Source: Rickettsia endosymbiont of Cantharis rufa (GTDB lineage Bacteria; Pseudomonadota; Alphaproteobacteria; Rickettsiales; Rickettsiaceae). Taken from it: a stretch of DNA of 64,000 nucleotides. A program made the position numbers and the translations under genes. The notes beneath the pieces are model-generated. The model was not told the origin of the DNA, did not search any database, and was given only the letters and a program-made list of their open reading frames with translations. Shown here piece by piece: positions 2,469 to 61,415 of the stretch. The DNA lies in contig NZ_OZ032150.1 of the NCBI RefSeq assembly GCF_964026445.1, forward strand, positions 558,001 to 622,000. Reading direction: 5' to 3'. Every line of letters starts with the position of its first letter. The first letter of the stretch is position 1.

Positions 2469-3988
2469 TGTTGTATCATCTTATTATAATGTTTCGATAA
2501 AACTTTTACGCCGTATAGCCATAATAGACATACGATAATAAAGCTAAACATTAATAATCCGGCTATATCGTTATGTACTGCGTTTGGGAAAATGCTAAAA
2601 GATATAAATTGAATAATAGCACCTATGGATTTACCGATTTTAGTACCCATCACATCAACAGCTGCTTTACCTTTAGTTTTCATTTCACTATCAAGTGGAA
2701 TATAAACCATTTCTTTAGTAGCATCGAAAAGCGAATATTTTACGGATTTAGAAAGTACATGCCAAAGCCCGCCGATAAAAACTATAACAACAAGCGGTGA
2801 ACTATAGCCAAGAGTGTTTACGATATTTTCTAAGTGATTTTCAAAAACTGTAAATGAAAAGAACATAACGCCTGCTCCAAACATCATAATTGGTGTTATA
2901 ATAGCTCCCCAAAACCAACCGCATATTCTAATTAAACTACTCCCTAAAAATGCACTAACTAAAGTAAGTACTCCTGTCCAAAAAAACACTTCACCGTGAT
3001 ATGAAATAAAATCTTTTGTTGTAGGGTAAAGTTGTTTTATTTTTGACATCCATAACCCTTCTATTAAGCTAATACTCATAGAATAAGACATTACAAGAAG
3101 ACAAATAAGGCCAAGATATTTAGAAGTTAATATTACTTTCGCACTTTCGACTAAGCTTAATTTTAATACATCTGTTCTTTGATTTTTAAATTTAATATTT
3201 TTGTCGGTTTCTACAACTGACTTATCAATAAATTTATGGAGAGCTAGACAAATTAATCCGGATATTAAAATAACCGTAATGAATGATTTTAAAAGAATCT
3301 CATTTGAATCATGCAGATGGGAAAATAAAGGTAGTAAGAAATGATTGCTCTTAGCAAAATAAATAATTATAGTTCCTGAGATAAGTAAATTAGTTTGTCC
3401 AAATAAAGTAAAAAATGAGTAAAATCTTGGTGCTTCTTCGATTTTAGTAATTTTATTTGCAAGCTGCCAATATAAAAGGGTAAATACTATTACTGGCCAT
3501 AGTTCCCCCATAATATAAAATAATACTAAACTCCACTGCCCCCAAATTATTAAAAACCATTTTAAATGAGGAAGAAGTGTTGTATAGTGCTTGATTAACT
3601 CAGGATCGGGATGGAAGAAATCTCTATATGGGAATAGAACAAAACCAAAAATTGCGAAGAAAAATAAAAAAGTACCGGTAATTATTCTAAAAACCTGCTC
3701 TGTAGTAATAATATTACAGAGTTTAGAATAAAGAATAACAAATAAAATACCCATGGGCATTTCACCCCAAAGTTTAATAAAACTCAATACTTCTGAGCTA
3801 ATTAAGGTAACAACAAAACTATCTTTAATACTACGAACTAAGTTTTGATTAAGTAAGATAAAGAACATTAGTAAAGCCATCGGAATGAATTTGGTTAATT
3901 CATACGATCTAATCGGCCATACGATATGTCTAAATCTACTATTTCTCGCCCTGTTCCACATTGTGAAATTAGAATTCACGGTACCCAT
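2465..3988 (-). CDS. tlcB: Tlc-family nucleotide translocase (probably Tlc2/TlcB)
   Basis: A 507-residue polytopic inner-membrane protein of the ATP/ADP translocase (Tlc, TC 2.A.12) family, which lets rickettsiae exchange nucleotides with the host cytosol. About 12 hydrophobic segments are visible, and the N-terminal stretch [19 protein letters not shown] is typical of the family. Rickettsiae encode five paralogues. Closeness to mdh suggests the second paralogue, but this rests on remembered gene order and not on an alignment. Substrate cannot be read from the sequence; some paralogues carry ATP/ADP and others CTP/UTP/GDP or GTP/GDP. It is separated from pyrG by an RPE-1. Confidence 0.9.
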
Positions 3989-4009
3989 TAATTTACTATG
4001 AGCTTATTT

Positions 4010-4150
4010 TTTTAGATTTCTTCCCAAACTCTACTTCTAGAGGTAATTTGTACGTCGATCCGGTACTCGAATCCTCGTGTACTAGTGTGTACGCTGTGGT
4101 TCTGTGTTCCGTGTCTCCTTCAAATTCCTTCTTATAAGCGAATTTAGAAA
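4010..4150 (-). repeat. Rickettsia palindromic element RPE-1, intergenic
   Basis: The minus strand is open through the element and would encode [18 protein letters not shown] followed by [18 protein letters not shown], the RPE-1 signature also found in frame in msbA. It lies between tlc and pyrG and is not part of a gene. Confidence 0.85.
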
Positions 4151-4264
4151 GAAATCTAATGCAACCTAGATTATAATAAAAATTATGTCAAGGTCTTTTA
4201 AAATAACCCCATATATTGTTGATTATTTTTATACTCGTTGAACTTTGTGTAACTCTTTTTTATT

Positions 4265-7419: not shown

Positions 7420-8225
7420 GGTCGCGCCCCCCGTATTGCAGCTTAGCATGAATAGTCTATAATCCTCAAACAGTAATAAGAGAGAATTATAGTTAAGGAG
7501 TTATGGCAAGAATAGATGTTAAGTGTAGATATTGTAACGACACAGAAAAAGTAGTAAAGGCGGGATATTCAATTTCAAAACAACAGAGATATCAATGCAA
7601 GCAGTGTAATCGATATTTTCAACTGTAATATATTAATAATGCCTCTAAGCCTGGAGTCAAGGCTCAGATAGTAGATATGTCAATCAATGGCTCTGGAGTT
7701 AGGGATACAGTAAGAGTATTAAAAGTGGGTATCAATACGGTTATCCGTGTTTTAAAAAAATCTAGCGTTAAAAAAGATAAATCATTCTATCAATACGATA
7801 GAAGTAATTATTGCTCCTGAAATAGATGAACAATGGTCTTATGTACAGAATAAATCCAAACAAAGATGGCTTTGATATTCTTTGGATAAGATTTTGTTAA
7901 AAGTAGTTGCTTATACTTTTGGTACAAGATGTGATAGCACATCAGAATCATTACTGAAAAAAACCGGAGGATTTTAAGGTTACTTTTTACTTTACAGATG
8001 GATGGGGAAGTTATGCTAGGTTATTAGATCCCAAAAAACACATTGTTAGTAAAAAATATACTCAACGGATAGAACGGGGTAACTTAAATCTTAGAACAAG
8101 ATGCAAAAGACTGACACGTAAAACAATTTGTTTTTCCAAGTCATTGGATATTCATGATAAAGTCATCGGAACTCTTATTGAACGTATAGCATTTAATATC
8201 CACATCTGCAAAATGGAGGTGCGGC
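7420..8225 (+). mobile_element. IS1-family insertion sequence, transposase frameshifted (copy A)
   Basis: About 806 bases bounded by related ends, GGTCGCGCCCCCCGTATTGC and (inverted) GGCCGCACCTCCATTTTGCA. The transposase reads MARIDVKCRYCNDTEKVVKA, a zinc-finger-like N-terminal domain with paired cysteines, then stops at 7626. Sense resumes in other frames as DEQWSYVQNKSKQRW, FTDGWGSYARLLDPKKH and IERGNLNLRTRCKRLTRKT, the InsB-type catalytic region. Several stops and frameshifts make it inactive. Unlike the other full copies it lacks the 24-base duplication near the start. No direct repeat flanks it. Confidence 0.85.
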
Positions 8226-8454
8226 CTAGAAGATGTTCTATTTCAGGCAAGCTTAACTTCTCACTATTTAAATTCAATATTATATTAAAAGCTTTTTTTA
8301 ATTCTTCTGCTGAGTAGGACATTTTATGAGAGAAATTATACTCAGGAAATAATTCCGGATGTTCACCCGCAAATTTTCCTTGAAGATTTGTATAAAATTC
8401 GTGTACTTTTATATATTGTTCTTGCAAAAATGTAGAAAAACTAGTCATATCCAT
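8226..8454 (-). pseudogene. Hypothetical gene truncated by IS1
   Basis: Begins MDMTSFSTFLQEQYIKVHEF at 8454 and reads about 76 codons (…LSLPEIEHLLG) before running into the IS1 right end. The remaining codons of the open frame belong to the IS. The family is not recognised. It follows a second decayed minus-strand gene upstream. Confidence 0.5.
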
Positions 8455-13080: not shown

Positions 13081-13253
13081 GGTCGTGCCCCCGTATTGCA
13101 GTTTAGCGTGAATAGTCTATAATCCTCAAACAGTAATAAGAGAGAATTATAGTTAAGGAGTTATGGCAAGAATATATGTTAAGTGTAGATATTGTAACGA
13201 CACAGAAAAAGTAGTAAAGGCGGGATATTCAATTTCAAAACAACAGAGATATC
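13081..13253 (+). mobile_element. IS1-family left-end fragment
   Basis: Starts with the end sequence GGTCGTGCCCCCGTATTGCA and matches copy A through the first part of the transposase (…KAGYSISKQQRY). It then breaks off into an IS3-family fragment. Confidence 0.8.
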
Positions 13254-13257
13254 TATA

Positions 13258-13626: not shown

Positions 13627-14456
13627 GGCCGCACCTCCATTTTACAGATGTGGATATTAAATGCTATACGTTCAATAAGAGTTCCGATGACTTTATCATG
13701 AATATCCAATGACTTGGAAAAACAAATTGTTTTACGTGTCAGTCTTTTGCATCTTGTTCTAAGATTTAAGTTACCCCGTTCTATCCGTTGAGTATATTTT
13801 TTACTAACAATGTGTTTTTTGGGATCTAATAACCTAGCATAACTTCCCCATCCATCTGTAAAGTAAAAAGTAACCTTAAAATCCTCCGGTTTTTTTCAGT
13901 AATGATTCTGATGTGCTATCACATCTTGTACCAAAAGTATAAGCAACTACTTTTAACAAAATCTTATCCAAAGAATACCAAAGCCATCTTTGTTTGGATT
14001 TATTCTGTACATAAGACCATTGTTCATCTATTTCAGGAGCAATAATTACTTCTATCGTATTGATAGAATGATTTATCTTTTTTAACGCTAGATTTTTTTA
14101 AAACACGGATAACCGTATTGATACCCACTTTTAATACTCTTACTGTATCCCTAACTCCAGAGCCATTGATTGACATATCTACTATCTGAGTCTTGACTCC
14201 AGGCTTAGAGGCATTATTAATATATTACAGTTAAAAATATCGATTACACTGCTTGCATTGATATCTCTGTTGTTTTGAAATTGAATATCCCGCCTTTACT
14301 ACTTTTTCTGTGTCGTTATAATATCTACACTTAACATCTATTCTTGATCTACACTTAACATATATTCTTGTCATAACTCCTTAACTATAATTCTCTCTTA
14401 TTACTGTTTGAGGATTATAGACTATTCATGCTAAGCTGCAATACGGGGGCGCGACC
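13627..14456 (-). mobile_element. IS1-family element, frameshifted (copy B)
   Basis: 830 bases in reverse orientation, with ends GGCCGCACCTCCATTTTACA and GCAATACGGGGGCGCGACC. It carries a tandem 24-base duplication at the transposase start, giving ARIDVKCR twice. Internal frameshifts match copies C and D. No direct repeat flanks it. Confidence 0.85.
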
Positions 14457-15423: not shown

Positions 15424-17346
15424 ATACCTACTTCGAGTCATGCAACAACGCTTTATTATCTAGTTCGGCTAGTTTGTTTGCTTTCTTCTCCTCTTTTTCT
15501 AACAGTTTGGCTGTGTTCGGTTCAAGTACCTTATATTTTCCTAAATTAATTGCACTTTCTGCAATCACTCCTAAAACTTTTGGATCTGTTGATAACTTTA
15601 ATACTGATCCTATCATAGAAATATATTTACCCTTACTAAATTTATCAGCAATATTAATTAAGTCAGGAGCATGTTCACTTGCTATATTAACTAGCTTTTC
15701 TCAACCTAATTTTAATTTTTGTCCTATAGAAGTTTCTTTTAGGAACTAATTTACTACTGGTCCTAAAGTATTAGCATGTTTTTCTAACAGTTCAAGAAGC
15801 TCTTGTTGAATAACTTTCTTTATCTCTGAACTATCATTTTGTAGTTGTATTACTGAATTAATCAATCCTTTTACTTCTTTTGATTTTTCTTCTTTTGGAA
15901 GTGATTTAATTAACTGGGCTTTTTGTATTATATCAGCAACTTTCTCACTTTCAGCGAGGCTAGGGCTAGCAAGCTTAGTAAACGAGGGCAAAGCGCCTGC
16001 TAAAAAAGCATTGATGTATCTAGGGCTTTACGTATGAGTTCCGGTTTTATGGCCGATGATTTTATTTTTTCTGCTACTATAGGATTACCTAATATACTCA
16101 ATATATCTTGTTTATTAGTATCTAGGTATTTAGGAAGCTCCTCTTTTAATATAGGAGCTAAATTATCGATAGCTTTTTTAGCATTATTTACTAACTTTAT
16201 TACTTCAGTTTTTTTGCCTGTAATAACTCTTTTTTTAATTCAGTGTTTACTCCCTCTAGTCCTAGGTTGGTATTAGTTCAAAGTTGGTTTTCTTTAAATT
16301 ACCTAAAAGCTTCTATAGCAAATGGAGTACTTTCTATTAATTTATCACTAGAATTTGCAATCAGTTCTATGGTATTTTTAAGAAATTCAGGTGCAACGAA
16401 TTTTTGTACTTTGTTGTTTAAAATATTTTCTTTAACCTGAGTTAATTCTTTTTGATTCTCAGGCTTTTTTAAAAATTCTACTAGATTTTCTTTAAGAAGA
16501 GGATTTACTTTATCTGAAGTGATAATGTCATGGATGTTCTTTAATATATTTGCCTGAGACCCGGGAGTTTTTTTTTGTTTAATATTTTTATATACTTCTT
16601 GTACTTTTGGATTTAAATCACCACTTAGTGCATTAGATGCTAAATCTACTCCTAATGTAGTTAATTCCCTGAAGAATCTAGGGCTTAATCCCCCTAACAC
16701 ATTTATTTTTTCTAGCTCTGAGGTCTGAAAGTTTTTTTTAGTTACCTTAGCAAGTCTTTTATTTAAAATTGGTGTAAGTACGTATAGCACAACAGTAGAT
16801 TGCAAGATGGTTTCTTTTGACGCATTAGATATCGATTCAGAATGTAAAATAGAAGAAACTTTTTTTTATAAGAGGTGCTGCGTCCGCTATCATCTTGCTA
16901 GTAGCTTCAATAGAGCTTGATTGATTAGCCGCATTTTTGGCATCTTTCAGGTTATTATATTCTGTTATAAGATCTGGCAGAACTTGTGCTTCTTCCCATG
17001 TAAATTGTAATGCACTAGCACCATCTTCGACTGCCGCCGTAATTCTTTGCATTATGCCTAAATTATTATCAGCAAGTGGTAATTGTAGTTCTAAATATTC
17101 TTTATTTAAATCATCATATTTTTTATTACCGGTGTTTATGCCAAGAGTTACCCATCCAGCTTCAAGATAAGAAAGATTTCGATATTCTTCTTTAAGTTGT
17201 TGTTCAAGTTTTTGTTCTCTTTTCTCTTTATCAATAGCTTCGTTTGACTCTGGACTTTTAGACGCTTCTAATACCTTTATAAGTGTTCTACTTATTGTAA
17301 TAAACCAGCTCTTGGCTTTATAGTTTTTTATTGATATTATTATCAA
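15424..17346 (-). pseudogene. Large decayed gene of unknown function
   Basis: Minus-strand coding sense runs from 17346 down to 15428 but hops between frames. The pieces are AAVEDGASALQFTWEEAQVL, then (after an A8 run near 16860) KVSSILHSESISNASKET and LGGLSPRFFRELTTLGVD, then LAPILKEELPKYLDTNKQ, then SEKVADIIQKAQLIKSLPKE and finally AKLLEKEEKKANKLAEL. The ancestral protein was about 630 residues, helical and charged, without membrane segments. I do not recognise the family. Confidence 0.6.
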
Positions 17347-17387
17347 TATGCTAGACTACCATTGTATAAATATTATAGATTATTGAC

Positions 17388-17594
17388 ATGAAAAATTTTA
17401 TAAAATATTTGCTCCTTACTTTTTTATATATAGCGATAACGGTAATAGTTGCTTATATGATTTTGGCTCAAACGATTCCTAATGACGGGCAATGTCATAT
17501 GATGGATAGACCGCCCGTTATTCATTATATTTTAGCTGCAATTATTACTGCTTTACCGATGTTAGTTTTAATATATAGTAGAAAGAAAAAATAA
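17388..17594 (+). CDS. Small two-helix membrane protein, function unknown
   Basis: 68 residues. Two hydrophobic segments (about 5-26 and 46-63) flank a short loop [12 protein letters not shown], and the C-terminus is SRKKK. It ends 4 bases before ruvA, so it is likely the first gene of the ruvA transcript. I do not recognise the family. Intact length and tight spacing favour a real gene. Confidence 0.6.
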
Positions 17595-17598
17595 TTAT

Positions 17599-18210
17599 AT
17601 GATCGGTAAATTAAGTGGTAAGATTGATTCCCAAGGTGATGATTACGTTATAATTGACGTAAACGGGGTAGGGTACTTAGTCTATGCCCCGGGTAAGACT
17701 TTAGGTAAACTTGCTGAAGGGGAGTTTTACAAACTATTTATCGAAACCCATGTTAGAGAGGAACATATCCATCTTTACGGTTTTTTGACTCTAGAAGAGA
17801 AGAGTTTTTTTAATTTACTGCAATCCGTGAACGGTATAGGTACAAGAATGGCTTTGTCTATCTTATCAAGACTTACGCCTGCGGATATCCAAATTGCTAT
17901 AAATAATGAAGATAAAGATATGTTTAAAGCAATATCAGGAGTAGGAGCTAAACTTGCCGAGCGTATAGTGTTAGAGCTGAAAGGTAAAGTAGCAAAAATA
18001 TCAAGTGGCCCTGCTATTATTAAAGATAGCTTAAATATCAAAAATATCACCCCCGTCGCAAGTAACGAAGTAATAAAAGCTTTAGTAAATCTAGGCTTTT
18101 CTAGGTTTGAAGCCCAAAACACCGTGCAGGGGCTCATTATCCAAAATCCCGAAATTTCTATTGATGATTTAATCAAAACAGCCCTGAAAAATCGAAATTC
18201 ATTAGCTTAA
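17599..18210 (+). CDS. ruvA: Holliday junction DNA helicase subunit RuvA
   Basis: Tetrameric DNA-binding subunit that loads RuvB on Holliday junctions. 203 residues, normal. The N-terminal OB fold starts [20 protein letters not shown]. Helix-hairpin-helix motifs lie at [17 protein letters not shown] and [20 protein letters not shown]. The C-terminal RuvB-binding domain ends [11 protein letters not shown]. That last tail (18141-18200) is repeated twice more before ruvB, showing that the present 3' end was remade by an insertion. The other tail copies would end in RNSNF, so the native end may have differed by a few residues. Confidence 0.96.
18141..18200 (+). repeat. ruvA 3'-end direct repeat, copy 1 (in the live gene)
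   Basis: About 60 bases from CCAAAATCCCGAAATTTCTA to ATCGAAATTC. It diverges from the other copies exactly where the antitoxin cassette begins. Confidence 0.8.
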
Positions 18211-18483
18211 AGAAATATTTAATTTCATTCCTAGAGCTATAGCAGCGCGGTCTAAAGTATCAAGGGTAACATTAGGATTATTAGGGTTTAAAAATCTATC
18301 TACAGCTGATCTACTAGTTTCAATTTTTTCTGCCATTTCTGACTTTGTTATATGTTTTTGCTCCATAATTTGCTCTGCAAGAATACGCTTATGAGCTATT
18401 ACTGCCACTTCTTCTAATATTCCAATTTTATCAAGAAAATCATCAAAATTAGAATCTAAATGTTTTGGATTAATTTTATTCAT
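18202..18483 (-). CDS. XRE-family antitoxin-like transcriptional regulator
   Basis: 93 residues from the ATG at 18483, which is preceded by a strong GGGGTGGAG ribosome site; the longer upstream frame lacks such support. The HTH domain [34 protein letters not shown] and [12 protein letters not shown] is typical of HigA/NadS-like antitoxins. Its stop overlaps the ruvA stop tail-to-tail by 9 bases. No RelE/HigB-type toxin is found beside it. A palindromic operator overlaps its promoter, so autorepression is likely. It appears to be cargo of the segment that duplicated the ruvA tail. Confidence 0.75.
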
Positions 18484-18529
18484 AGCTCCACCCCTTTTCT
18501 TCTTTGTAAGAGTTTTTGATATATTGAGC

Positions 18530-18558
18530 ATTGTAATAATGTACCATAATTGGTACAA
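18530..18558 (-). promoter_or_regulatory. Promoter and palindromic operator of the antitoxin gene
   Basis: On the minus strand TTGTAC, a 17-base spacer and TACAAT form a -35/-10 pair (18558 to 18530). The perfect inverted repeat TGTACC-N6-GGTACA at 18540-18557 overlaps the -35 box and spacer, as expected of an autoregulatory site. Confidence 0.6.
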
Positions 18559-18627
18559 TTTAGCAATTAATAATAAAATAATAATAGACAATTTAGCAAT
18601 TTAAAAATGCCGTTCAAGACACTATTA

Positions 18628-18650
18628 CCCGAAATCTCTATTGATGAATT
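18628..18650 (+). repeat. ruvA 3'-end direct repeat, copy 2 (first half; second half 19481-19526)
   Basis: CCCGAAATCTCTATTGATGA… interrupted by IS1 copy C and continued by GATGAATTAATCAAAACAAC after it. The joined copy would encode [20 protein letters not shown], ending in its own stop. Confidence 0.8.
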
Positions 18651-19480
18651 GGTCGCACCTCCATTTTACAGATGTGAATATTAAAAGGCTATACGTTCAA
18701 TAAGAGTTCCGATGACTTTATCATGAATATCCAATGACTTGGAAAAACAAATTGTTTTACGTGTCAGTCTTTTGCATCTTGTTCTAAGATTTAAGTTACC
18801 CCGTTCTATCCGTTGAGTATATTTTTTACTAACAATGTGTTTTTTGGGATCTAATAACCTAGCATAACTTCCCTATCCATCTGTAAAGTAAAAAGTAACC
18901 TTAAAATCCTCCGGTTTTTTTCAGTAATGATTCTGATGTGCTATCACATCTTGTACCAAAAGTATAAGCAACTACTTTTAACAAAATCTTATCCAAAGAA
19001 TACCAAAGCCATCTTTGTTTGGATTTATTCTGTACATAAGACCATTGTTCATCTATTTCAGGAGCAATAATTACTTCTATCGTATTGATAGAATGATTTA
19101 TCTTTTTTAACGCTAGATTTTTTTAAAACACGGATAACCGTATTGATACCCACTTTTAATACTCTTACTGTATCCCTAACTCCAGAGCCATTGATTGACA
19201 TATCTACTATCTGAGTCTTGACTCCAGGCTTAGAGGCATTATTAATATATTACAGTTAAAAATATCGATTACACTGCTTGCATTGATATCTCTGTTGTTT
19301 TGAAATTGAATATCCCGCCTTTACTACTTTTTCTGTGTCGTTACAATATCTACACTTAACATCTATTCTTGATCTACACTTAACATCTATTCTTGCCATA
19401 ACTCCTTAACTATAATTCTCTCTTATTACTGTTTGAGGATTATAGACTATTCATGCTAAGCTGCAATACGGGGCACGACC
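18651..19480 (-). mobile_element. IS1-family element with target duplication (copy C)
   Basis: 830 bases, ends GGTCGCACCTCCATTTTACA and GCAATACGGGGCACGACC. It is flanked by the 8-base direct repeat GATGAATT (18643-18650 and 19481-19488), marking a simple transposition into ruvA-tail copy 2. It carries the 24-base in-frame duplication and the same frameshifts as copies B and D, so the transposase is not intact. Confidence 0.92.
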
Positions 19481-19585
19481 GATGAATTAATCAAAACAAC
19501 CCTAAAAAATCGAAATTCTAATTTTTAGTTGATAAATTAACAATTATTTTATATTAATCTTAGTAACTAAAAATTAATATAAATT

Positions 19586-20893
19586 ATGTTAGAATTGAAA
19601 ACTTTTTTAGAAAGTATAAATGCTGAAGAAACATTTAAAAAATTAGAACGTAATCCTTCTACCTTATATTTAAAACATGAGCATAATGCTTGGCATTCAG
19701 AAGAGAATTTAAGTAATTTATTTAACCTTTTAAGGGATGCTGGTATTAAAAGTTTGGTATTTATAGGTTTATCTGCAATTAAAAAAATGTTCCGAATTAC
19801 TAGATTAATTTTTAATAGATCCTGAATGTCGTATTACTAATATTAAAATAGATAGCAGTTTTGTAGATCATGAAAAACTTGCGATTATTCTAAAGACTTT
19901 AAAAAAATAATACTCCTCAAAAAATTGATTGGAGAAATACTAGGGTAAAAGCCTGTGAATTTAAGACATTTTTAGCTAATATTTCTCAAAAACCTAATTT
20001 AAAAATTTTATCTCTTCCTAATGTAGAAAATTACTCCTCAGACACAGATAGATAGTCTTAATAAATTTTTTTGCATGAGTAATGTTAATTCGTTTACATT
20101 AAGTTATTGTTTGATACGTAAAGATATAATAGAACTATTCCAATCAATAAAAATAATAAATTCAAGAGTTTATTTGAGGAATAATGCAAAATCTAATTCC
20201 TTACAATTCTTTGAAAAGTTTTTTCGAGATTCTCTTATTAATACTTTAGATATGAAGGGTTTTTATATAGATGATATAGGAGTGGCAGCTATATCTTATT
20301 TTCTAGAAAGGAATAACCACACTATCTCATTAAGCTTTTCTTTAGCTAGCGAAATAAGTGAAGAATCAATAGAAAAATTACTAACTTCAATAGGAAATAG
20401 TAAAGTTATTAGCTGTTCAATTAATATAGAACAAGAACAATAATTATCTAAAGCTATTAGAGAAATTACTGCTATAACTTTGAATAAAATAAAGCATGTA
20501 TCAGAAGAAATAGTAAAGGAAGTAGCTAAGGAAATAATACCAATCTTAAGAAATTTTTATGAAAAGAAGTTAAAAATCGCCGATAGCGAAACTTGTAAAT
20601 ATTTAAAATTATATCGAAATTTACATCTTAAAAAATATTAAAAGAACTAGAAGTAAACTATGACAATTTAGGCGCTATAACTAAAAATACAGATAAATAT
20701 ATTAATGAGTGTTTTTTTTGAAATGACAGGAATTGTAAAAAATACAGCAATAGGTGATTTACCCCTAGAAATAATGAGACATACAGCATCTTGCTTAAAA
20801 TTTTCAGATATAAAATCCACAAATGCGAAACCAGGGAATGTAGTACTCTTATCTGGGGAAGAGGGGACAAGCGAAGAGTGGGTGTTGTTATAA
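19586..20893 (+). pseudogene. Decayed leucine-rich-repeat-like gene with F-box-like end
   Basis: Pieces in sense order: MLELKTFLESINAEETFKKL with LFNLLRDAGIKSLVFIGLSA (LRR-like); shifted DPECRITNIKIDSSFVDHEK; MKGFYIDDIGVAAISYFLER; EEIVKEVAKEIIPILRNFYE; and last IGDLPLEIMRHTASCLKFSD. This last piece fits the L-P-x-E-I…L-x-x-x-D spacing of an F-box-like motif. Several stops and shifts kill it. It sits between ruvA-tail copies 2 and 3, so it looks like the cargo of a second insertion. The F-box reading is a motif-level guess. Confidence 0.55.
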
Positions 20894-20900
20894 TATTGCC

Positions 20901-20965
20901 CCAAATCCTGAAATTTCTATTGATGAATTAATCAAAACAGCCTTGAAAAATCGAAATTCTAATTT
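20901..20965 (+). repeat. ruvA 3'-end direct repeat, copy 3 (next to ruvB)
   Basis: CCAAATCCTGAAATTTCTAT through AATCGAAATTCTAATTTTC. It encodes [20 protein letters not shown] in frame but has no gene in front. Its position directly before ruvB suggests it is the original ruvA end. Confidence 0.8.
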
Positions 20966-21035
20966 TCAATTAAATTAAAATATAGCATAAAACTATTTTT
21001 TAGCTATTATTAGTCATTATATTTAATCTAAAATA

Positions 21036-22067
21036 ATGACTAATATATTATCGCCCGAAAAAAGTGAAAATGATCAAGAATTGCCGATAAGACCGTCATA
21101 TTTGCAAGAATTTGTTGGTCAACAGCAGATTAAAGAAAATCTTTCGGTATTTATTAAGGCTGCAAAATCTAGAAATGAGCATCTTGATCATACTTTATTT
21201 TATGGTCCGCCTGGGCTTGGTAAGACTACACTTGCTAAGATTATTTCCAACGAAATTGGCGGTAATTTCAAATCTACCTCCGGTCCTGCTATACTTAAGG
21301 CAGCCGATCTTGCTGCTATCCTTACCAATCTTGAAAAGAACGACGTATTATTTATCGACGAAATTCACCGCATAAATACTGCGGTTGAAGAGGTTTTATA
21401 TCCTGCTATGGAAGATTTTGAGCTTGATATAATTATCGGTGAAGGACCTGCCGCAAGATCGGTGAAAATAACCTTGCCGCAATTTACGTTAATCGGTGCT
21501 ACCACACGACTTGGTTTGCTTAGCAATCCTTTGCGTGATAGGTTCGGCATCCCTGTGCGTTTAAATTTTTATAATACGGAAGAACTTAAGAAAGTTCTAA
21601 ATAGAGCAAGTAAACTATTCGGTATTGATTTGACCGATTCGGGTTCTGAAGAAATAGCTAAAAGAAGTAGAGGAACACCGAGAATTGCCTTAAGGTTACT
21701 GCGTCGTATAAGAGATTTTGCGGCAGTTGACGGTAAATCAACAGTAGATAAAAAAATCTCCGATTTTGGTTTAAATCGTTTGGAAGTTGATGCGATTGGG
21801 CTTGATAGCAATGATTATCGTTATCTAAAATTCATAGCGGATAATTATAACGGTGGTCCGGTTGGTATTGAAACGATCGCTGCTGCCTTGTCTGAACAGC
21901 GTGATGCACTTGAAGAAACTATAGAGCCGTACCTAATACAGATAGGTTTACTACAAAGAACCCCTAGAGGTAGGGTAATCACTATTGCTGCTTTTGAGCA
22001 TTTGAAAATGCCAGTGCCAAATCAACCACATCATCAATTTAATATTTTTAACGAGAATGAGCAATAA
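21036..22067 (+). CDS. ruvB: Holliday junction DNA helicase RuvB
   Basis: AAA+ hexameric motor driving branch migration with RuvA. 343 residues, full length. Walker [12 protein letters not shown], Walker [10 protein letters not shown], sensor-1 region [20 protein letters not shown], and the C-terminal winged helix ([19 protein letters not shown]). It is now about 2.8 kb from ruvA, although the two are normally adjacent. It overlaps the msbA start by 11 bases. A promoter for ruvB must lie in the inserted segment or transcription must cross it; I could not identify a convincing one. Confidence 0.97.
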
Positions 22068-23967
22068 TAATTTGAATAATAGACCTCTTTCCAAAGTCGC
22101 TTATAGCGAGGAATTTGTAGGAGACACGAAACGCAGCACCGTAGCGTACAAAAAAGTACGTGAGGATGCGAGTATCGGATCGACGCACAAATTACCTCTA
22201 GAAGTAGAGTTTGGAAAGAGGCCTGATGATTATACAGCTATTTATGTTATAAAAAGGCTGATAAAAGATCATGTTAAACCTTATGCAAATAAAATATATT
22301 TTGCAATATTCTGTATGGCTATTGCAGCAATTTGTACTGCTGTTATCGTGCATGCAGTTAAGCCTATTATCGATAAGGTTTTTCTAACGCATGATAGGAA
22401 GATGCTTATAATAATGCCGATAGTGCTGACTACTACTTTTTCCATAAAAGGAATTTCGGAATATTATCAGAATTATCTAATAAAATTTGCAGGTCAGAGA
22501 GTATTAAACGATTTGCAGATGAAAATGTATGAGCATTTGTTATTTGCCGATATTTCTTTTATCCAAAAACAAACCTCAGGGCGTCTTATATCTCGTTTTA
22601 CTAACGATATTTCTTTGATGCGTGGTGCTGTTTCTAATTTACTTGTCGGATGTGCTAAACATTTCCTAACGGTAGTATTTTTAATAGGATCAATGTTTAA
22701 CTTAGAACCGGTATTATCGTGTGTAGTTTTCCTTGTTTTCCCTTTGGCCGTTTATCCGGTACAAAAAATGGGAAGAAAGATACGTAAAATATCATCGCAG
22801 TCCCAAGAGGAATTAGGACATTATACTTCTAGGCTTGATGAAGCATTCCAGTCAATTAAGATTATTAAATCTTTTGTCGGCGAAAAAATAGAAAGTAATA
22901 GAGCATCCTTGATTATTAATAATATTTTAGAGTTTTATAAGAAAACTTCTAAATTAGATGCGATGGTTTCACCGATTATGGAGATTTTAAGCGGTCTTGC
23001 GGTTGGAGGGATGGTATGGTATGGAGGTAATTTAGTGCTTGAGGGGAAAAGTACACCCGGTGCTCTTTTTGCTTTTTTAGCTTCTTTTGCTGCGGCTTAT
23101 AGACCTTTTAAAAGCTTGGTATCCTTAAATGTCAATTTACAAGAAGGAATTGCGGCAGCTAAAAGAGTATTCAGTATTTTAGATACTGAACCTCTTATTA
23201 AAGATTGTGAAGATGCTAAAGAAATAAATTTGTATAATCCACAAATTACTTTTGAGAAGTTAGCTTTAAGTTTTGAGAGTAAAATAGCTATAAAATATAT
23301 AGATTTAAAGTTAGAACCTCATAAAATGATTGCGTTTGTTGGGCGTTCCGGTAGCGGCAAGACTTCTCTTAGTAATTTATTAGTACGTTTCTATGATCCA
23401 ATTGATGGAAGAATTTTAATTAATAATCATGATATTAAAGATATTAAGCTTACTTCGCTTAGAGGTCAGATTTCTTTAGTTACGCAAGATACTCATTTAT
23501 TTGATACAAGTGTTGCAGAAAATATAGCATATGGTCACGGAAACGCTACAAAAGAAGAGATAATAGAAGCGGCAAAATATGCTGATGCTCATGAGTTTAT
23601 TAGGCATCTACCGAATGGTTACGATACGCAGATAGGAGTGCAGGGGGCGACGCTTTCAGGTGGTCAGCGTCAGCGTTTATCTATTGCTAGAGCTTTCCTA
23701 AAAGATGCGCCTATTTTAATTTGGGATGAAGCAACGAGTAGCTTAGACCAAGCTTCCGAACAGAAAATTTTAGAATCTTTAAAGAAATTACGCCAAGGAA
23801 AAACCACTTTAATTATTACGCATCGTTTAAGTAGTATTATCGATCTTGATAACATTATCGTTATGAAAAACGGTGAAATTTGTGAGCGGGGTACTCACAT
23901 TCAATTACTTAAGAATAAGGATGAATATTATAGGTTATATAATAAAGAATTAAGAGAAAACAGTTGA
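22057..23967 (+). CDS. msbA: Lipid A/LPS export ABC transporter MsbA with N-terminal RPE-1
   Basis: Half-transporter (636 residues) that flips lipid A-core across the inner membrane. The transmembrane domain spans about residues 75-360 and the nucleotide-binding domain about 385-630: Walker [12 protein letters not shown]-loop VTQDTHLFD, signature [14 protein letters not shown], Walker [15 protein letters not shown]-loop ITHRLSS. Residues about 12-56 are an in-frame RPE-1 ahead of the first helix, where a cytosolic tail can tolerate it. The start overlaps ruvB. The subfamily assignment is by overall similarity; another ABC exporter is possible but less likely. Confidence 0.88.
22090..22224 (+). 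repeat. RPE-1 read in frame in msbA
   Basis: Encodes [20 protein letters not shown] then [20 protein letters not shown], matching the intergenic copies at 4.1, 54.4 and 63.8 kb. Confidence 0.9.
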
Positions 23968-26787: not shown

Positions 26788-27756
26788 TTAAGGATTTACT
26801 GCTAGCCTGTACTTTAAATTTACAAGTTTTATATGACAATTAACGCTACATTTAGTGTTTTTTGTAACTTTAGTAGATGAAGGTTTTTTAGAGTTTTTAA
26901 CTAAAGTTTTACTTTGTGGTTTTTTTAAATTAATATTTTTTAGAAATTTCTCGGTTTCATCAGGTAAATACTCTATTTTTACTTTAGTTATACCTTGATT
27001 TTTAAATGCTAAAATTTCAGCTGCTTTTTGTGAAACATCTATTATACGATTTTTCTTAAAAGGACCCCTATCATTAACCATTAATATTACTGATTTATTA
27101 TTGGATTTATTGGTAACTTTAACTAAGCAAGGAAGAGGAAGAGTTTTATGTGCGGCAGTTAATAGGTTTTTATTAAATTTATCACCGTTAGCTGTTTTTT
27201 TACCGTGGAAACCGTCCTTGCGTCCACCGTACCATGAGGCATAACCTGTTTCGGTAAAAGATTTAGGGTTGTGAGGTTTGTAAGTTTTCCCCTCTATTCT
27301 ATAATTTTTTCCAACTTTATAATGTCCTTTATAAGTTAGATTATGAGGATCATCTTTTGATAACTCCTTGTATGAATATTTGCGGGAATAAGGTAATTTT
27401 TTTGAGCTATTACAGCCGCTTAGTCCTAAACAAAAAATTAATAAAAGTAATATACTTGTTGAACAACCAAAATTGGCGACAATGTCTGTGTAAGTCCTTG
27501 GATGCTGAACGTTTATTATACGCTCCGCTCCTCGGATTACAGACCAATTACTCTTTTTCAAGTTGAACTTCGCATAACAACTCTTTATTTTACAGGAGTA
27601 TAGACCTAATTTGTACGTCAATCCGGCGCTCGCATCCGCATGTGCTTTTTTGTACGTTGCGGTGGTGAGCACTTCCGTGTTTTCTTCAAATTCCTCTTTA
27701 TTAGCTTCGTTTTGCAAAGGGTCCAAGTTGAATTTATAATTCTTCACTATTATCAC
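26788..27756 (-). CDS. rlpA: RlpA-like septal-ring lipoprotein with RPE-built N-terminus
   Basis: The double-psi beta-barrel domain covers about residues 165-255: [44 protein letters not shown] and VNDRGPF. The motif set matches RlpA, a septal lytic transglycosylase in some bacteria. The lipoprotein signal [14 protein letters not shown] sits at about 100-114 and not at the N-terminus. The first 98 residues are palindromic sequence: an RPE-1 (about 17-54) and a second RPE family (about 55-98). No ATG, GTG or TTG start lies between the repeats and the signal. The annotated start overlaps the BON gene by 23 bases. Export may be impaired unless an unusual start is used. Confidence 0.82.
27463..27730 (-). 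repeat. RPE-1 nested in a second RPE family, in rlpA
   Basis: RPE-1 part (27595-27708) reads [20 protein letters not shown] and [11 protein letters not shown]. Around it, AATTCAACTTGGACCC on one side and GAGCGGAGCGTATAATAAAC on the other belong to the second family seen at 30.2, 31.5 and 54.3 kb. Confidence 0.7.
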
Positions 27757-37215: not shown

Positions 37216-38595
37216 ATGAAAAAAAATAGAGCAACACATTAAAAAACAGCGTAATGATACAGATACTCAAGTAAAGAAATATAAACAAGATCTTGATGTA
37301 ATCGGCATTAGACATGACCATAAGTCTGCACATGTTGAAGTTCCGAATCATGCTACTGGCGAGTTTGAATATTTTAAATGGGACTGGATGACAAGCATTA
37401 CGGGTAGTCATTCAGAAATAGTAAAATATTTAAGAAAATAGTAAGAACTTTAAAAGAAACTAAAAATAACCTAGCTCAGTATGAAAACTCAGTATCTAAC
37501 TTGGATGCTAGTACTAAAAATGAACTTGATGTTAATATTAAGAAGCATAATATTATTGCACCGATACAAGACACTAATAAGTTAATATCATAAATATTAA
37601 CAGGAATGCAAACCTGGTTAGACACAAAAAGTCATATCCCTATAGACCTTAAGTAAAAATTCTTAGAGTTAGGTTCTAATAATTTAGAACTATTCATAAA
37701 AGCTGCTTATAACAAATTTAACAATAAGTGGATAGTTAAAGAGTTTATTGATAATGCTGTAAAAACTGAAGAAGAAGGTAGAAAATATCTAGCCGATTGT
37801 GATTGTAGTTCGACAGACCAGCTATGGACAAAACTTGTTGAATCTGAAATAGAAAGTCTTATAATCCAACAAGATACTAATAAGTTAATAGATTAAGTAT
37901 TAACAGGAATGCAAACCTGGTTAGACACAAAAAGTCATATCCCTATAGACCTTAAGCAAAAATTATTAGAGTTAGACTCTAATAATTTAGCAAAGTTTAT
38001 AGAAAGTGCTTTTAATAAATCTAACAATAAATGGACAGTTAAAGAATTTATTGATAATGCTTTTGTACCACCTAGAGAGGGAAATAACAAATATCTAGCT
38101 GATAGCGGTTATGATTCAACTGAGCAGTTATGGACTAAAATGGAAAACCTTAGAGCAAGCGAGACTTTAAATAAAGCTGCAACGTCGAGTGTAAGCTCTA
38201 GTGACCTTAAAGGTAACACGTCAGATTAAGATTCCGATGATGATATAGAAGTTATATCAAAAATACTTGGAACTGAAGTAACGCTTACTAATGGTGCTAA
38301 ATACGAAGTTAAGAAGATTATAGATTTATTAGATAAACCAAATTTTATAAAACAATTAACTAATATTTAAAGCAAATTATCGCCCGAAGATTCTAATCTT
38401 GTTAAAAAGGAAATAGCATTAAAATTAGCATATATTTCTAATAACGATATGGATAAATATGAAGCTGTACATGAGATAGTCGATAATATACCACAAACGT
38501 TTATTGATGAATTCAATAACTATGATATCCTTACTTTTGACCAAATGAAAATTGAAAAAGCAAAAATCTTAGGCGGCGGTGTTTCGTATTTATAA
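37216..38595 (+). pseudogene. Dead gene with a 303-base tandem duplication and repeated in-frame stops
   Basis: The ATG frame fails after a poly-A run at 37219-37226. The next frame carries KKQRNDTDTQVKKYKQDLDV, IRHDHKSAHVEVPNHATGEF and YFKWDWMTSITGSHSEIVKY; after a stop at 37441 sense moves on. From 37442 one frame reads to 38595 apart from five TAA codons. It contains two copies of MQTWLDTKSHIPIDLK…SNNLA…KEFIDNA…STEQLW. The only open ORF is the second copy, 37909-38229 (106 codons), which could still be translated. The last part reads YEAVHEIVDNIPQTFIDEF and ends GGGVSYL. The family is unknown. Confidence 0.6.
37601..38206 (+). repeat. Tandem duplication, period 303 bases
   Basis: CAGGAATGCAAACCTGGTTA begins at 37601 and again at 37904, and similarity extends through each unit (101 codons, frame kept). 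Unit 1 has TAA where unit 2 has CAA in the LK-Q-K segment. Confidence 0.8.
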
Positions 38596-54274: not shown

Positions 54275-54530
54275 TTAGACCAAGGACGGTTAATTTAAAA
54301 GCGAAACTGCACAGCGTATATATAATACGTGAGCACAGTCGAAGCGTGCAAAATTAGACTCCCTATATAAGTTATCTTCTAAAGGTAATTTGTACGTCGA
54401 TCCGGTACTCGAATCCTCACGTACGTTTGAGTACGCTGCGGTTCTGCGTTCCGTGTCTCCTTCAAATTCCTCTTTATAAGATGACTTATGCAAGAAGTCT
54501 GTTGATTATCCCTAGTCCAAGTTAAAAAAC
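54275..54530 (-). repeat. RPE-1 nested in a second-family RPE
   Basis: The outer ends TTAACTTAGACCAAGGACGG and ATCCCTAGTCCAAGTTAAAA are inverted. Inside, 54375-54485 on the minus strand reads KSSYKEEFEGDTERRTAAYS and [14 protein letters not shown], an RPE-1. Same architecture as in rlpA. Confidence 0.75.
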
Positions 54531-60585: not shown

Positions 60586-61415
60586 GGTCGCACCTCCATT
60601 TTACAGATGTGGATATTAAATGCTATACGTTCAATAAGAGTTCCGATGACTTTATCATGAATATCCAATGACTTGGGAAAACAAATTGTTTTACGTGTCA
60701 GTCTTTTGCATCTTGTTCTAAGATTTAAGTTACCCCGTTCTATCCGTTGAGTATATTTTTTACTAACAATGTGTTTTTTGGGATCTAATAACCTAGCATA
60801 ACTTCCCCATCCATCTGTAAAGTAAAAAGTAACCTTAAAATCCTCCGGTTTTTTTCAGTAATGATTCTGATGTGCTATCACATCTTGTACCAAAAGTATA
60901 AGCAACTACTTTTAACAAAATCTTATCCAAAGAATATCAAAGCCATCTTTGTTTGGATTTATTCTGTACATAAGGCCATTGTTCATCTATTTCAGGAGCA
61001 ATAATTACTTCTATCGTATTGATAGAATGATTTATCTTTTTTAACGCTAGATTTTTTTAAAACACGGATAACCGTATTGATACTCACTTTTAATACTCTT
61101 ACTGTATCCCTAACTCCAGAGCCATTGATTGACATATCTACTATCTGAGCCTTGACTCCAGGCTTAGAGGCATTATTAATATATTACAGTTGAAAATATC
61201 GATTACACTGCTTGCATTGATATCTCTGTTGTTTTGAAATTGAATATCCCGCCTTTACTACTTTTTCTGTGTCGTTACAATATCTACACTTAACATCTAT
61301 TCTTGATCTACACTTAACATCTATTCTTGCCATAACTCCTTAACTATAATTCTCTCTTATTACTGTTTGAGGATTATAGACTATTCATGCTAAGCTGCAA
61401 TACGGGGGCGTGACC
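60586..61415 (-). mobile_element. IS1-family element, frameshifted (copy D)
   Basis: 830 bases, ends GGTCGCACCTCCATTTTACA and GCAATACGGGGGCGTGACC. It has the 24-base duplication and the shared frame defects. One side abuts an IS3 remnant and the other a truncated istB, with no direct repeat. It probably sits at a recombination or deletion junction. Confidence 0.85.

What the first reader, a model, noticed from the sequence alone, without database searches (positions are those of the whole stretch)
18141..20965. Two cargo segments between ruvA and ruvB, each followed by a new copy of the ruvA 3' end
Three copies of an approx. 60-base ruvA tail lie at 18141-18200, 18628-18650 joined to 19481-19526, and 20901-20965. 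Between copies 1 and 2 sits an XRE antitoxin gene; between 2 and 3 a decayed LRR/F-box-like gene. Copy 1 loses similarity one base before the antitoxin stop codon. Copies 2 and 3 share variants (GATGAATTAATC, TTCTAATTTT) that copy 1 lacks. This looks like two insertions at the same spot, each rebuilding the 3' end of the host gene so that ruvA stays functional. I know of no named transposon class in Rickettsia that does this with a protein-coding target.
Basis: partly seen in the sequence, partly recalled or inferred. Interest (0 to 1): 0.78.

Follow-up and report, generated by a model that had tools for sequence, protein, structure and literature searches.

The report
Stacked ruvA tail copies in Rickettsia
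In one Rickettsia lineage the end of the DNA-repair gene ruvA occurs three times in a row, each copy followed by different DNA; this is best explained by outside DNA being spliced into the gene's end more than once with the old ends left behind, a fossil of recombination rather than a new kind of transposon.

Summary
In detail: three ruvA 3'-end copies lie between ruvA and ruvB (c1, c2, c3). c2 is split by an IS1-like element with an 8-bp target repeat. A same-species genome (G058; record L031) has the three copies without the IS.

The cargos are unequal. The LRR-like gene is an old resident of the gap: 17 of 23 genus genomes have it there, and in 15 of those no third tail was found. The antitoxin is the later arrival. 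It sits at the same ruvA position, with toxin and no second tail, in G005. c2 continues into the ordinary ruvA-LRR junction of relatives, so it is the displaced resident tail; c1 came with the antitoxin.

c1-antitoxin, c2-LRR and c3-ruvB each match an allele found alone elsewhere in the genus. Best explanation (0.5): serial displacement by recombination, homologous in ruvA and illegitimate at the other end, as proposed for Vibrio T6SS immunity arrays. No recombinase was recognised in the cargo proteins scanned, repeat lengths vary, and 464 kb of the genome gave no second case, so a dedicated transposon class is unlikely. One other module locus shows a weak, short version.

The parts
17599..18210 (+). 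ruvA, 203 aa; C-terminus ends ...KNRNSLA because the last codons come from the antitoxin side
   Evidence: many relatives end ...NSNF or ...NAGL
18116..18200 (+). tail copy c1: end of the working ruvA, joined to the antitoxin end
18202..18483 (-). XRE-type antitoxin, 93 aa from the conserved start, without its toxin
   Evidence: HTH_26 (PF13443) 4.6e-8, HigA model only weak and under its cut-off; toxin not found in G000
18484..18603 (.). operator-like right end of the antitoxin module (TGTACCATAATTGGTACA...); function inferred
   Evidence: shared with G005, G058 and other loci of the module
18604..18650 (+). tail copy c2, left part: displaced resident ruvA tail
18643..18650 (.). left target repeat GATGAATT of the IS1-like element; right one at 19481-19488
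18651..19480 (-). IS1-like element, 830 bp, transposase frame broken; absent from L031
   Evidence: the family name rests on recall of IS1 InsA and end sequences
19481..19540 (+). tail copy c2, right part, running into the normal ruvA-LRR junction (TAGTTGATAAATTAAC...)
   Evidence: 62 of 65 to L042, 61 of 65 to L043
19586..20893 (+). decayed LRR-like gene, old resident of the ruvA-ruvB gap
   Evidence: intact in L031
20895..20980 (+). tail copy c3, starting right after the LRR stop and merging into the pre-ruvB spacer
20981..21035 (+). conserved pre-ruvB spacer (TATAGCATAAAACTATTTTTTAGCTAT)
   Evidence: fold of 20975-21030 not better than shuffles, z -0.39
21036..22067 (+). ruvB

Best explanation
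The locus is a stack of three alleles of the same gap. Allele C is ruvA followed directly by the pre-ruvB spacer; allele B is ruvA followed by the LRR-like gene; allele A is ruvA followed by the toxin-antitoxin module. Incoming DNA from another Rickettsia paired with ruvA (homologous step) and its other end, just past the cargo, was joined by illegitimate recombination to the resident ruvA some 70-90 nt before its stop. That replaced the working 3' end with the incoming one, added the cargo, and left the old tail as a dead remnant. Done once (B onto C) it gives c2-LRR-c3; done again (A onto that) it gives c1-antitoxin-c2. Later the toxin was lost, c2 lost 8 nt, and in the window's strain the LRR gene decayed and an IS1-like element landed in c2. 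Shown: the three alleles exist separately in the genus; c2 is joined to the resident ruvA-LRR junction; all three tails are shared with G058; the IS is not. Inferred: the order, the donors and the recombination mechanism.
For: c2 runs through the stop into the ruvA-LRR junction of relatives: L031 c2 matches L043 at 103 of 111 aligned positions plus an 8-nt gap. Pre-ruvB sequence follows c3 as it follows ruvA in LRR-less G020, G019 and G002. G005 has ruvA-antitoxin-toxin-spacer-ruvB with nearly the same junction (...AATTA|TTAGCTTAA against ...AATTCA|TTAGCTTAA). The ruvA-linked antitoxins form one clade (window, G058, G005; support 100/98), and their synonymous divergence is below that of ruvA (G058-G005: 18 of 94 against 53 of 139 same-residue codons, Fisher 0.002), as after transfer. 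All three tails were found only in G000 and G058 among 23 genus genomes. c2 and c3 start at different points of ruvA, as random illegitimate joints would. The same model is proposed in print for Vibrio T6SS arrays (PMC5361080, passages).
Against: No donor carrying allele A in the window's own clade was found, and c1 does not resemble the G005 tail (L031 against L053: 48 of 60 in the last bin compared, against 53-60 for the 14 clade members other than G012, whose bins are out of register). All 13 other genomes of the window's clade have an LRR match at the gap, so an LRR-less recipient for c3 must be assumed. Junction microhomology is short or unclear, and the large deletion typical of such events is not seen. 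Low antitoxin synonymous divergence is not special to this pair: it was below ruvA in three of four control pairs too. Whether Rickettsia takes up DNA in this way was not examined.
Confidence: 0.5

Rival explanations
1. Duplicative insertion without a donor ruvA allele: a break or stalled fork near the ruvA stop was repaired by switching template to the module (and, in an earlier event, to the LRR region) and back to ruvA some 85 nt upstream, copying the tail.
For: In G058 the two tails bracket the antitoxin module over 85 nt with edges at the module. At G014 a 17-nt copy (16 of 17) of the neighbouring gene's start sits at the far edge of the same module, while G004, G020 and G002 show one copy and no module there.
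Against: Four of seven module loci in relatives show no convincing edge repeat. The G014 match is AT-rich and weak (E 0.017), and unrelated matches inside the module reach E 0.002 in the same test. The nearly identical ruvA junction in G005 needs a separate explanation.
Confidence: 0.27
2. A dedicated cassette or site-specific element whose attachment site is a gene end and which carries a replacement end.
For: Tails in series at one spot; by eye, the sequence shared between module copies stops at or next to the antitoxin stop codon in the eight copies printed; the module recurs at the same ruvA position in G005. An imperfect 55-nt inverted repeat (39 of 55) brackets the LRR gene and c3 in the window and in L031, above 500 and 60 local shuffles.
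Against: No recombinase recognised in the cargo proteins scanned; c2 and c3 start at different points, about 17 nt at G014, nothing convincing at four loci; one case only in 464 kb; LRR is an old resident. The inverted repeat was picked by a search, is AT-rich, and exceeded all shuffles in only 3 of 17 loci tested (L031, L043, L048).
Confidence: 0.1
3. c3 is the original ruvA tail left by the first LRR insertion in the ancestor and kept only in this lineage.
For: c3 lies where such a remnant would lie.
Against: It would have to be lost in the 15 other LRR-bearing genomes, and a functionless remnant of that age should differ from the ruvA tails by more than about 10% (the expectation is inference).
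Confidence: 0.06

Closest known systems
Serial effector-immunity displacement in Vibrio cholerae T6SS clusters, and Rhs C-terminal displacement (PMC5361080, passages read; the Rhs work is known to me through what those passages cite)
   Same: New 3' end plus cargo joined upstream of the old 3' end; the old end and its gene are pushed downstream; repeated events make an array; the proposed mechanism is homology-facilitated illegitimate recombination; orphan immunity-type genes remain
   Different: The target is a housekeeping repair gene whose product hardly changes, not a polymorphic toxin; the remnants are only about 85 nt; the orphan is an antitoxin that seems to be drifting
Mobile ORF insertions that replace gene C-termini in fungal mitochondria (Glomus atp6, atp9, cox2, nad3; Allomyces atp6; PMC3630166, passages read)
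   Same: Protein-coding gene with a new C-terminus, a cargo ORF, then the displaced native C-terminus
   Different: There the cargo encodes a homing endonuclease; none was recognised here
Homology-facilitated illegitimate recombination (PMC3240628, passages read)
   Same: Homology on one side only, foreign DNA inserted
   Different: The usual 3-10 bp microhomology and roughly 1-kb deletions were not demonstrated here
Genomic islands that use gene 3' ends as attachment sites (recalled)
   Same: 3' end restored and duplicated
   Different: No integrase recognised, unequal repeat lengths

Membership tests
Serial displacement by homology-facilitated illegitimate recombination | Remnant of the old 3' end downstream of the new end plus cargo | tested here: met
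   c2 continues into the resident ruvA-LRR junction
Serial displacement by homology-facilitated illegitimate recombination | Component alleles exist separately in relatives | tested here: met
   G005 (A), 15 LRR-bearing genomes (B), G020/G019/G002 (C); the A allele is not from the window's own clade
Serial displacement by homology-facilitated illegitimate recombination | Incoming segment of foreign origin | tested here: inconclusive
   antitoxin clade and low synonymous divergence fit, but three of four control pairs show the same; c1 not traced to a donor
Serial displacement by homology-facilitated illegitimate recombination | 3-10 bp microhomology at the illegitimate junction | tested here: inconclusive
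   short A/T-rich matches only, judged by eye
Site-specific integrative element at a gene 3' end | Recombinase gene in the element | tested here: not met
   Pfam and NCBIfam scans of the antitoxin, toxin, LRR protein and LRR pieces; other small ORFs were not scanned
Site-specific integrative element at a gene 3' end | Repeats with the same boundaries at each insertion | tested here: not met
   different starts of c2 and c3; no convincing repeat at four of seven module loci
Transposon | Terminal inverted repeats and a fixed-length target repeat | tested here: not met
   no fixed repeat length; the imperfect inverted repeat around the LRR gene is not general among relatives. Met only for the IS1-like element
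Homing-endonuclease mobile ORF | Endonuclease gene | tested here: not met
Type II toxin-antitoxin pair (Gp49/RelE-type toxin with XRE antitoxin) | Toxin gene next to the antitoxin | tested here: not met
   toxin PF05973 beside the antitoxin in G005, no match in G000: orphan antitoxin
LRR/F-box protein | LRR or F-box profile match | tested here: inconclusive
   no Pfam LRR or F-box match; four of six weak PDB sequence matches are LRR-type proteins (E 0.095-0.47; that they are LRR proteins is recalled); structure prediction unavailable

The most novel reading that the evidence does not exclude
A small toxin-antitoxin module moves among Rickettsia by inserting at gene ends together with a replacement gene end, at ruvA and at a second conserved gene, so that the host gene survives; it would be a minimal, recombinase-free cassette that uses the host's own recombination.
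Probability: 0.12. Interest if true: 0.7.

Novelty: new variant of a known kind. Interest (0 to 1): 0.36.

Why it matters
Arrays of displaced gene ends are known from toxin loci, where selection for variety is obvious. Here the same architecture sits at the end of a conserved recombination gene in an obligate intracellular bacterium, is dated relative to a split of two strains, and its component alleles can still be read in relatives. It offers a marker for recombination between Rickettsia and a way to ask whether gene ends act as landing sites for toxin-antitoxin modules.

Tried and rejected
Chance similarity: rejected. Tandem unequal crossing-over alone: it would repeat the same cargo, but the two cargos differ. 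LRR gene as a recent cassette: rejected, it matches at ruvA-ruvB in 17 of 23 genomes; three weak matches elsewhere (G005, G011 and a second one in G058) were not followed. Direct import of c1 from a G005-like donor: not supported, the tail sequences differ. A general mechanism in this genome: 342 ORFs of at least 120 aa in 464 kb gave no other non-repeat tail copy followed by cargo within 6 kb; the other nearby hits were repeats with copies elsewhere or looked like neighbouring paralogues, judged from the hit table only. An RNA element: no Rfam match at gathering scores in 17000-22600. A pre-ruvB hairpin: fold no better than shuffles. An inverted repeat around the LRR gene: real in the window and L031, not general. 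Module in phages: no match for the antitoxin; plasmid matches of the toxin are all under 60% identity. The ispB-type loci were fetched but not analysed. Papers: searches listed no title or abstract opening about ruvA-ruvB insertions in Rickettsia (one search listed 20 of 31, six of 15). I read passages of four papers (the last, on ruvA in Wolbachia, concerns selection and has no duplication in the text) and nothing of the rest.
Full report
What is there. ruvA (17599-18210) and ruvB (21036-22067) are separated by 2825 bp. The gap holds, in order: the end of ruvA (c1, 18116-18200) joined to the stop codon of an antitoxin on the other strand (18202-18483); a second ruvA tail (c2, 18604-18650 and 19481-19540) split by an 830-bp IS1-like element (18651-19480) with GATGAATT on both sides; a decayed LRR-like gene (19586-20893); a third ruvA tail (c3, 20895-20980); and a short conserved spacer before ruvB. 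c1 and c3 agree at 59 of 65 positions, against at most 37 of 65 in 200 shuffled spacers (a rough shuffle).

Relatives. ruvA was sought in 58 genomes and found in 55. ruvA-ruvB stretches were fetched for 20 other genus genomes, and 26 loci were measured: these 20, the window, L031, and L022-L025. The nearest is G058, labelled the same species by the tool; its contig has the same length as the record behind L031, Rickettsia endosymbiont of Omalisus fontisbellaquei, and I take them as the same. It has all three tails, the antitoxin and an intact 442-aa LRR-like gene, and no IS. Two early-branching genomes (G015, G011) have ruvA and ruvB 7 bp apart.

The alleles. An LRR-like match lies between ruvA and ruvB in 17 of 23 genus genomes (positions compared). 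In G020, G019 and G002 ruvA is followed directly by the pre-ruvB spacer. In G005, an endosymbiont of the beetle Pyrocoelia, ruvA is followed by the same antitoxin plus a toxin gene (PF05973, Gp49-like) and then the spacer; neither an LRR gene nor a second tail was found there. With the ruvA tails of all loci as queries, the 22 spacers longer than 20 nt gave long tail copies only in the window and L031; hits in six others (L040, L042, L043, L044, L049, L050) were weak, the clearest being L044 (G001), a 20-24-nt residue beyond an inserted palindromic-type repeat. A search with the window's c1 gave three places each in G000 and G058, one place in each of 14 other genomes, and none in seven of 23; in those seven even the end of ruvA itself stayed below the cut, so one search is the test that counts for them.

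Which tail is which. Downstream of c2 the sequence is the ordinary ruvA-LRR junction of relatives: L031 c2 aligns to L043 over 111 positions with 103 identities and one 8-nt gap. So c2 is the old resident tail, and c1 is the one joined to the antitoxin. Downstream of c3 is the pre-ruvB spacer, joined as in the LRR-less alleles; in L042 and other LRR-bearing genomes the LRR stop leads to that spacer without a tail between. Tails within a genome agree at 89-92% over the aligned parts (for example 66 of 74 for c1-c2, leaving out the gap, and 65 of 72 for c2-c3 in L031), while the same tail in the window and L031 agrees at 77 of 82, 46 of 47 plus 61 of 65, and 90 of 95. Both extra tails are shared by the two strains and so predate their split; the IS came later, or was lost without trace in L031.

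The antitoxin module. It occurs in 8 of 23 genus genomes: at ruvA in the window, G058 and G005, and elsewhere in five. By eye, the sequence shared between copies stops at or next to the antitoxin stop codon. The ruvA-linked copies form a clade (100/98); the three copies at the second gene do not form one in the best tree, though the data do not reject it (p 0.415). The toxin has no match in G000; G058 has only a remote one elsewhere (34%). Between the window and G058, five of six changed antitoxin codons alter the residue, against 3 of 21 between G058 and G005, so the orphan may be drifting in this strain; the numbers are small. Synonymous divergence of the antitoxin is below that of ruvA for G058-G005 (18 of 94 against 53 of 139) and for three of four control pairs, and above it for G015-G011: the module does not follow its hosts, which fits transfer, but the ruvA-linked pair is not special in this.

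A possible second case. In G014 and G019 the module sits before the start codon of a conserved gene (found in 23 of 23 genomes). In G014 a 17-nt copy of that gene's start (16 of 17) lies at the far edge of the module; G019 has a 16-nt version (14 of 16). G004, G020 and G002 show one copy and no module in the 330 nt printed. The match is weak (E 0.017 for G014, 0.42 for G019), and in the same test unrelated matches inside the module reached E 0.002, so it is suggestive only. G001 carries the module next to the same gene without a repeat; G005, G015 and G011 show none that convinces at their loci (G015: 12 of 13 nt at the edges, E 1.2).

How it most likely works. Each unit of the stack (c1-antitoxin, c2-LRR, c3-ruvB) resembles an allele found alone in the genus. 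The simplest route is serial displacement: incoming DNA recombines with ruvA by homology on one side, its free end is joined illegitimately within the resident ruvA shortly before the stop, and the old tail remains downstream. Only joints that leave one complete ruvA survive, and long remnants would be lost by recombination between direct repeats, so short tails are what one expects to see (inference). The newest unit then lies nearest ruvA. Kirchberger and colleagues propose this for T6SS immunity arrays in Vibrio cholerae (PMC5361080, passages), and homology-facilitated illegitimate recombination is described in PMC3240628 (passages). The fungal mitochondrial gene hybrids (PMC3630166, passages) share the layout but carry endonuclease ORFs, which were not recognised here.

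What speaks against it. No donor of allele A was found in the window's own clade; c1 is not G005-like; all 13 other genomes of the clade have an LRR match at the gap, so an LRR-less recipient must be assumed for c3; junction microhomology is not clear. Template-switch duplication from the cell's own chromosome explains c1-c2 about as well and would need no donor ruvA. I therefore give displacement 0.5 overall, higher for c1-c2 than for c3.

Why not a new transposon class. No recombinase was recognised in the cargo proteins scanned, there is no fixed repeat length, each cargo is known without the tail copy, and 342 ORFs of at least 120 aa in 464 kb (the window plus 20 stretches, about 32% of the genome) gave no second gene with a displaced tail and cargo. 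That sample leaves two thirds of the genome unscanned. An imperfect 55-nt inverted repeat (39 of 55) does bracket the LRR gene and c3 in the window and L031 and exceeds local shuffles (0 of 500 in the window), but of 17 loci tested only L031, L043 and L048 exceeded all of 60 shuffles, so I do not read it as the ends of an element.

Noticed in passing
L071 (G014) 3440-4171; L072 (G019): The same toxin-antitoxin module beside a conserved gene's start, with a short weak copy of that start on its far side; G004, G020 and G002 have one copy and no module there.
   Followed up: partly
L044 (G001) 860-1010: About 130 nt of palindromic-repeat-like DNA (label from recall) inserted about 18 nt before the usual ruvA stop without a visible tail duplication; RuvA there ends ...KNRLSA.
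   Followed up: partly
window 19532-19586 and 20994-21048: Imperfect 55-nt inverted repeat around the LRR gene, 39 of 55, above local shuffles here and in L031 but not in most relatives.
   Followed up: partly
window 13627-14456, 60586-61407, 7429-8226, 13081-13256: Further copies of the IS1-like element, 96-99% identical to the one inside c2, and one 85% fragment.
   Followed up: no
window 22057-22250: The 5' end of the ABC-transporter-like ORF 22057-23967 matches repeats at 54406-54503, 4064-4158 and 27629-27746; looks like a Rickettsia palindromic element carried in frame (gene name and label from recall).
   Followed up: no
window 37606-38229: The head of ORF 37909-38229 is repeated at 37606-37725 at 87.5%, perhaps a local duplication.
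   Followed up: no
L073 (G001) 3591-3878 (in the orientation): Another antitoxin of this family without its close toxin, at the same conserved gene as in G014.
   Followed up: no
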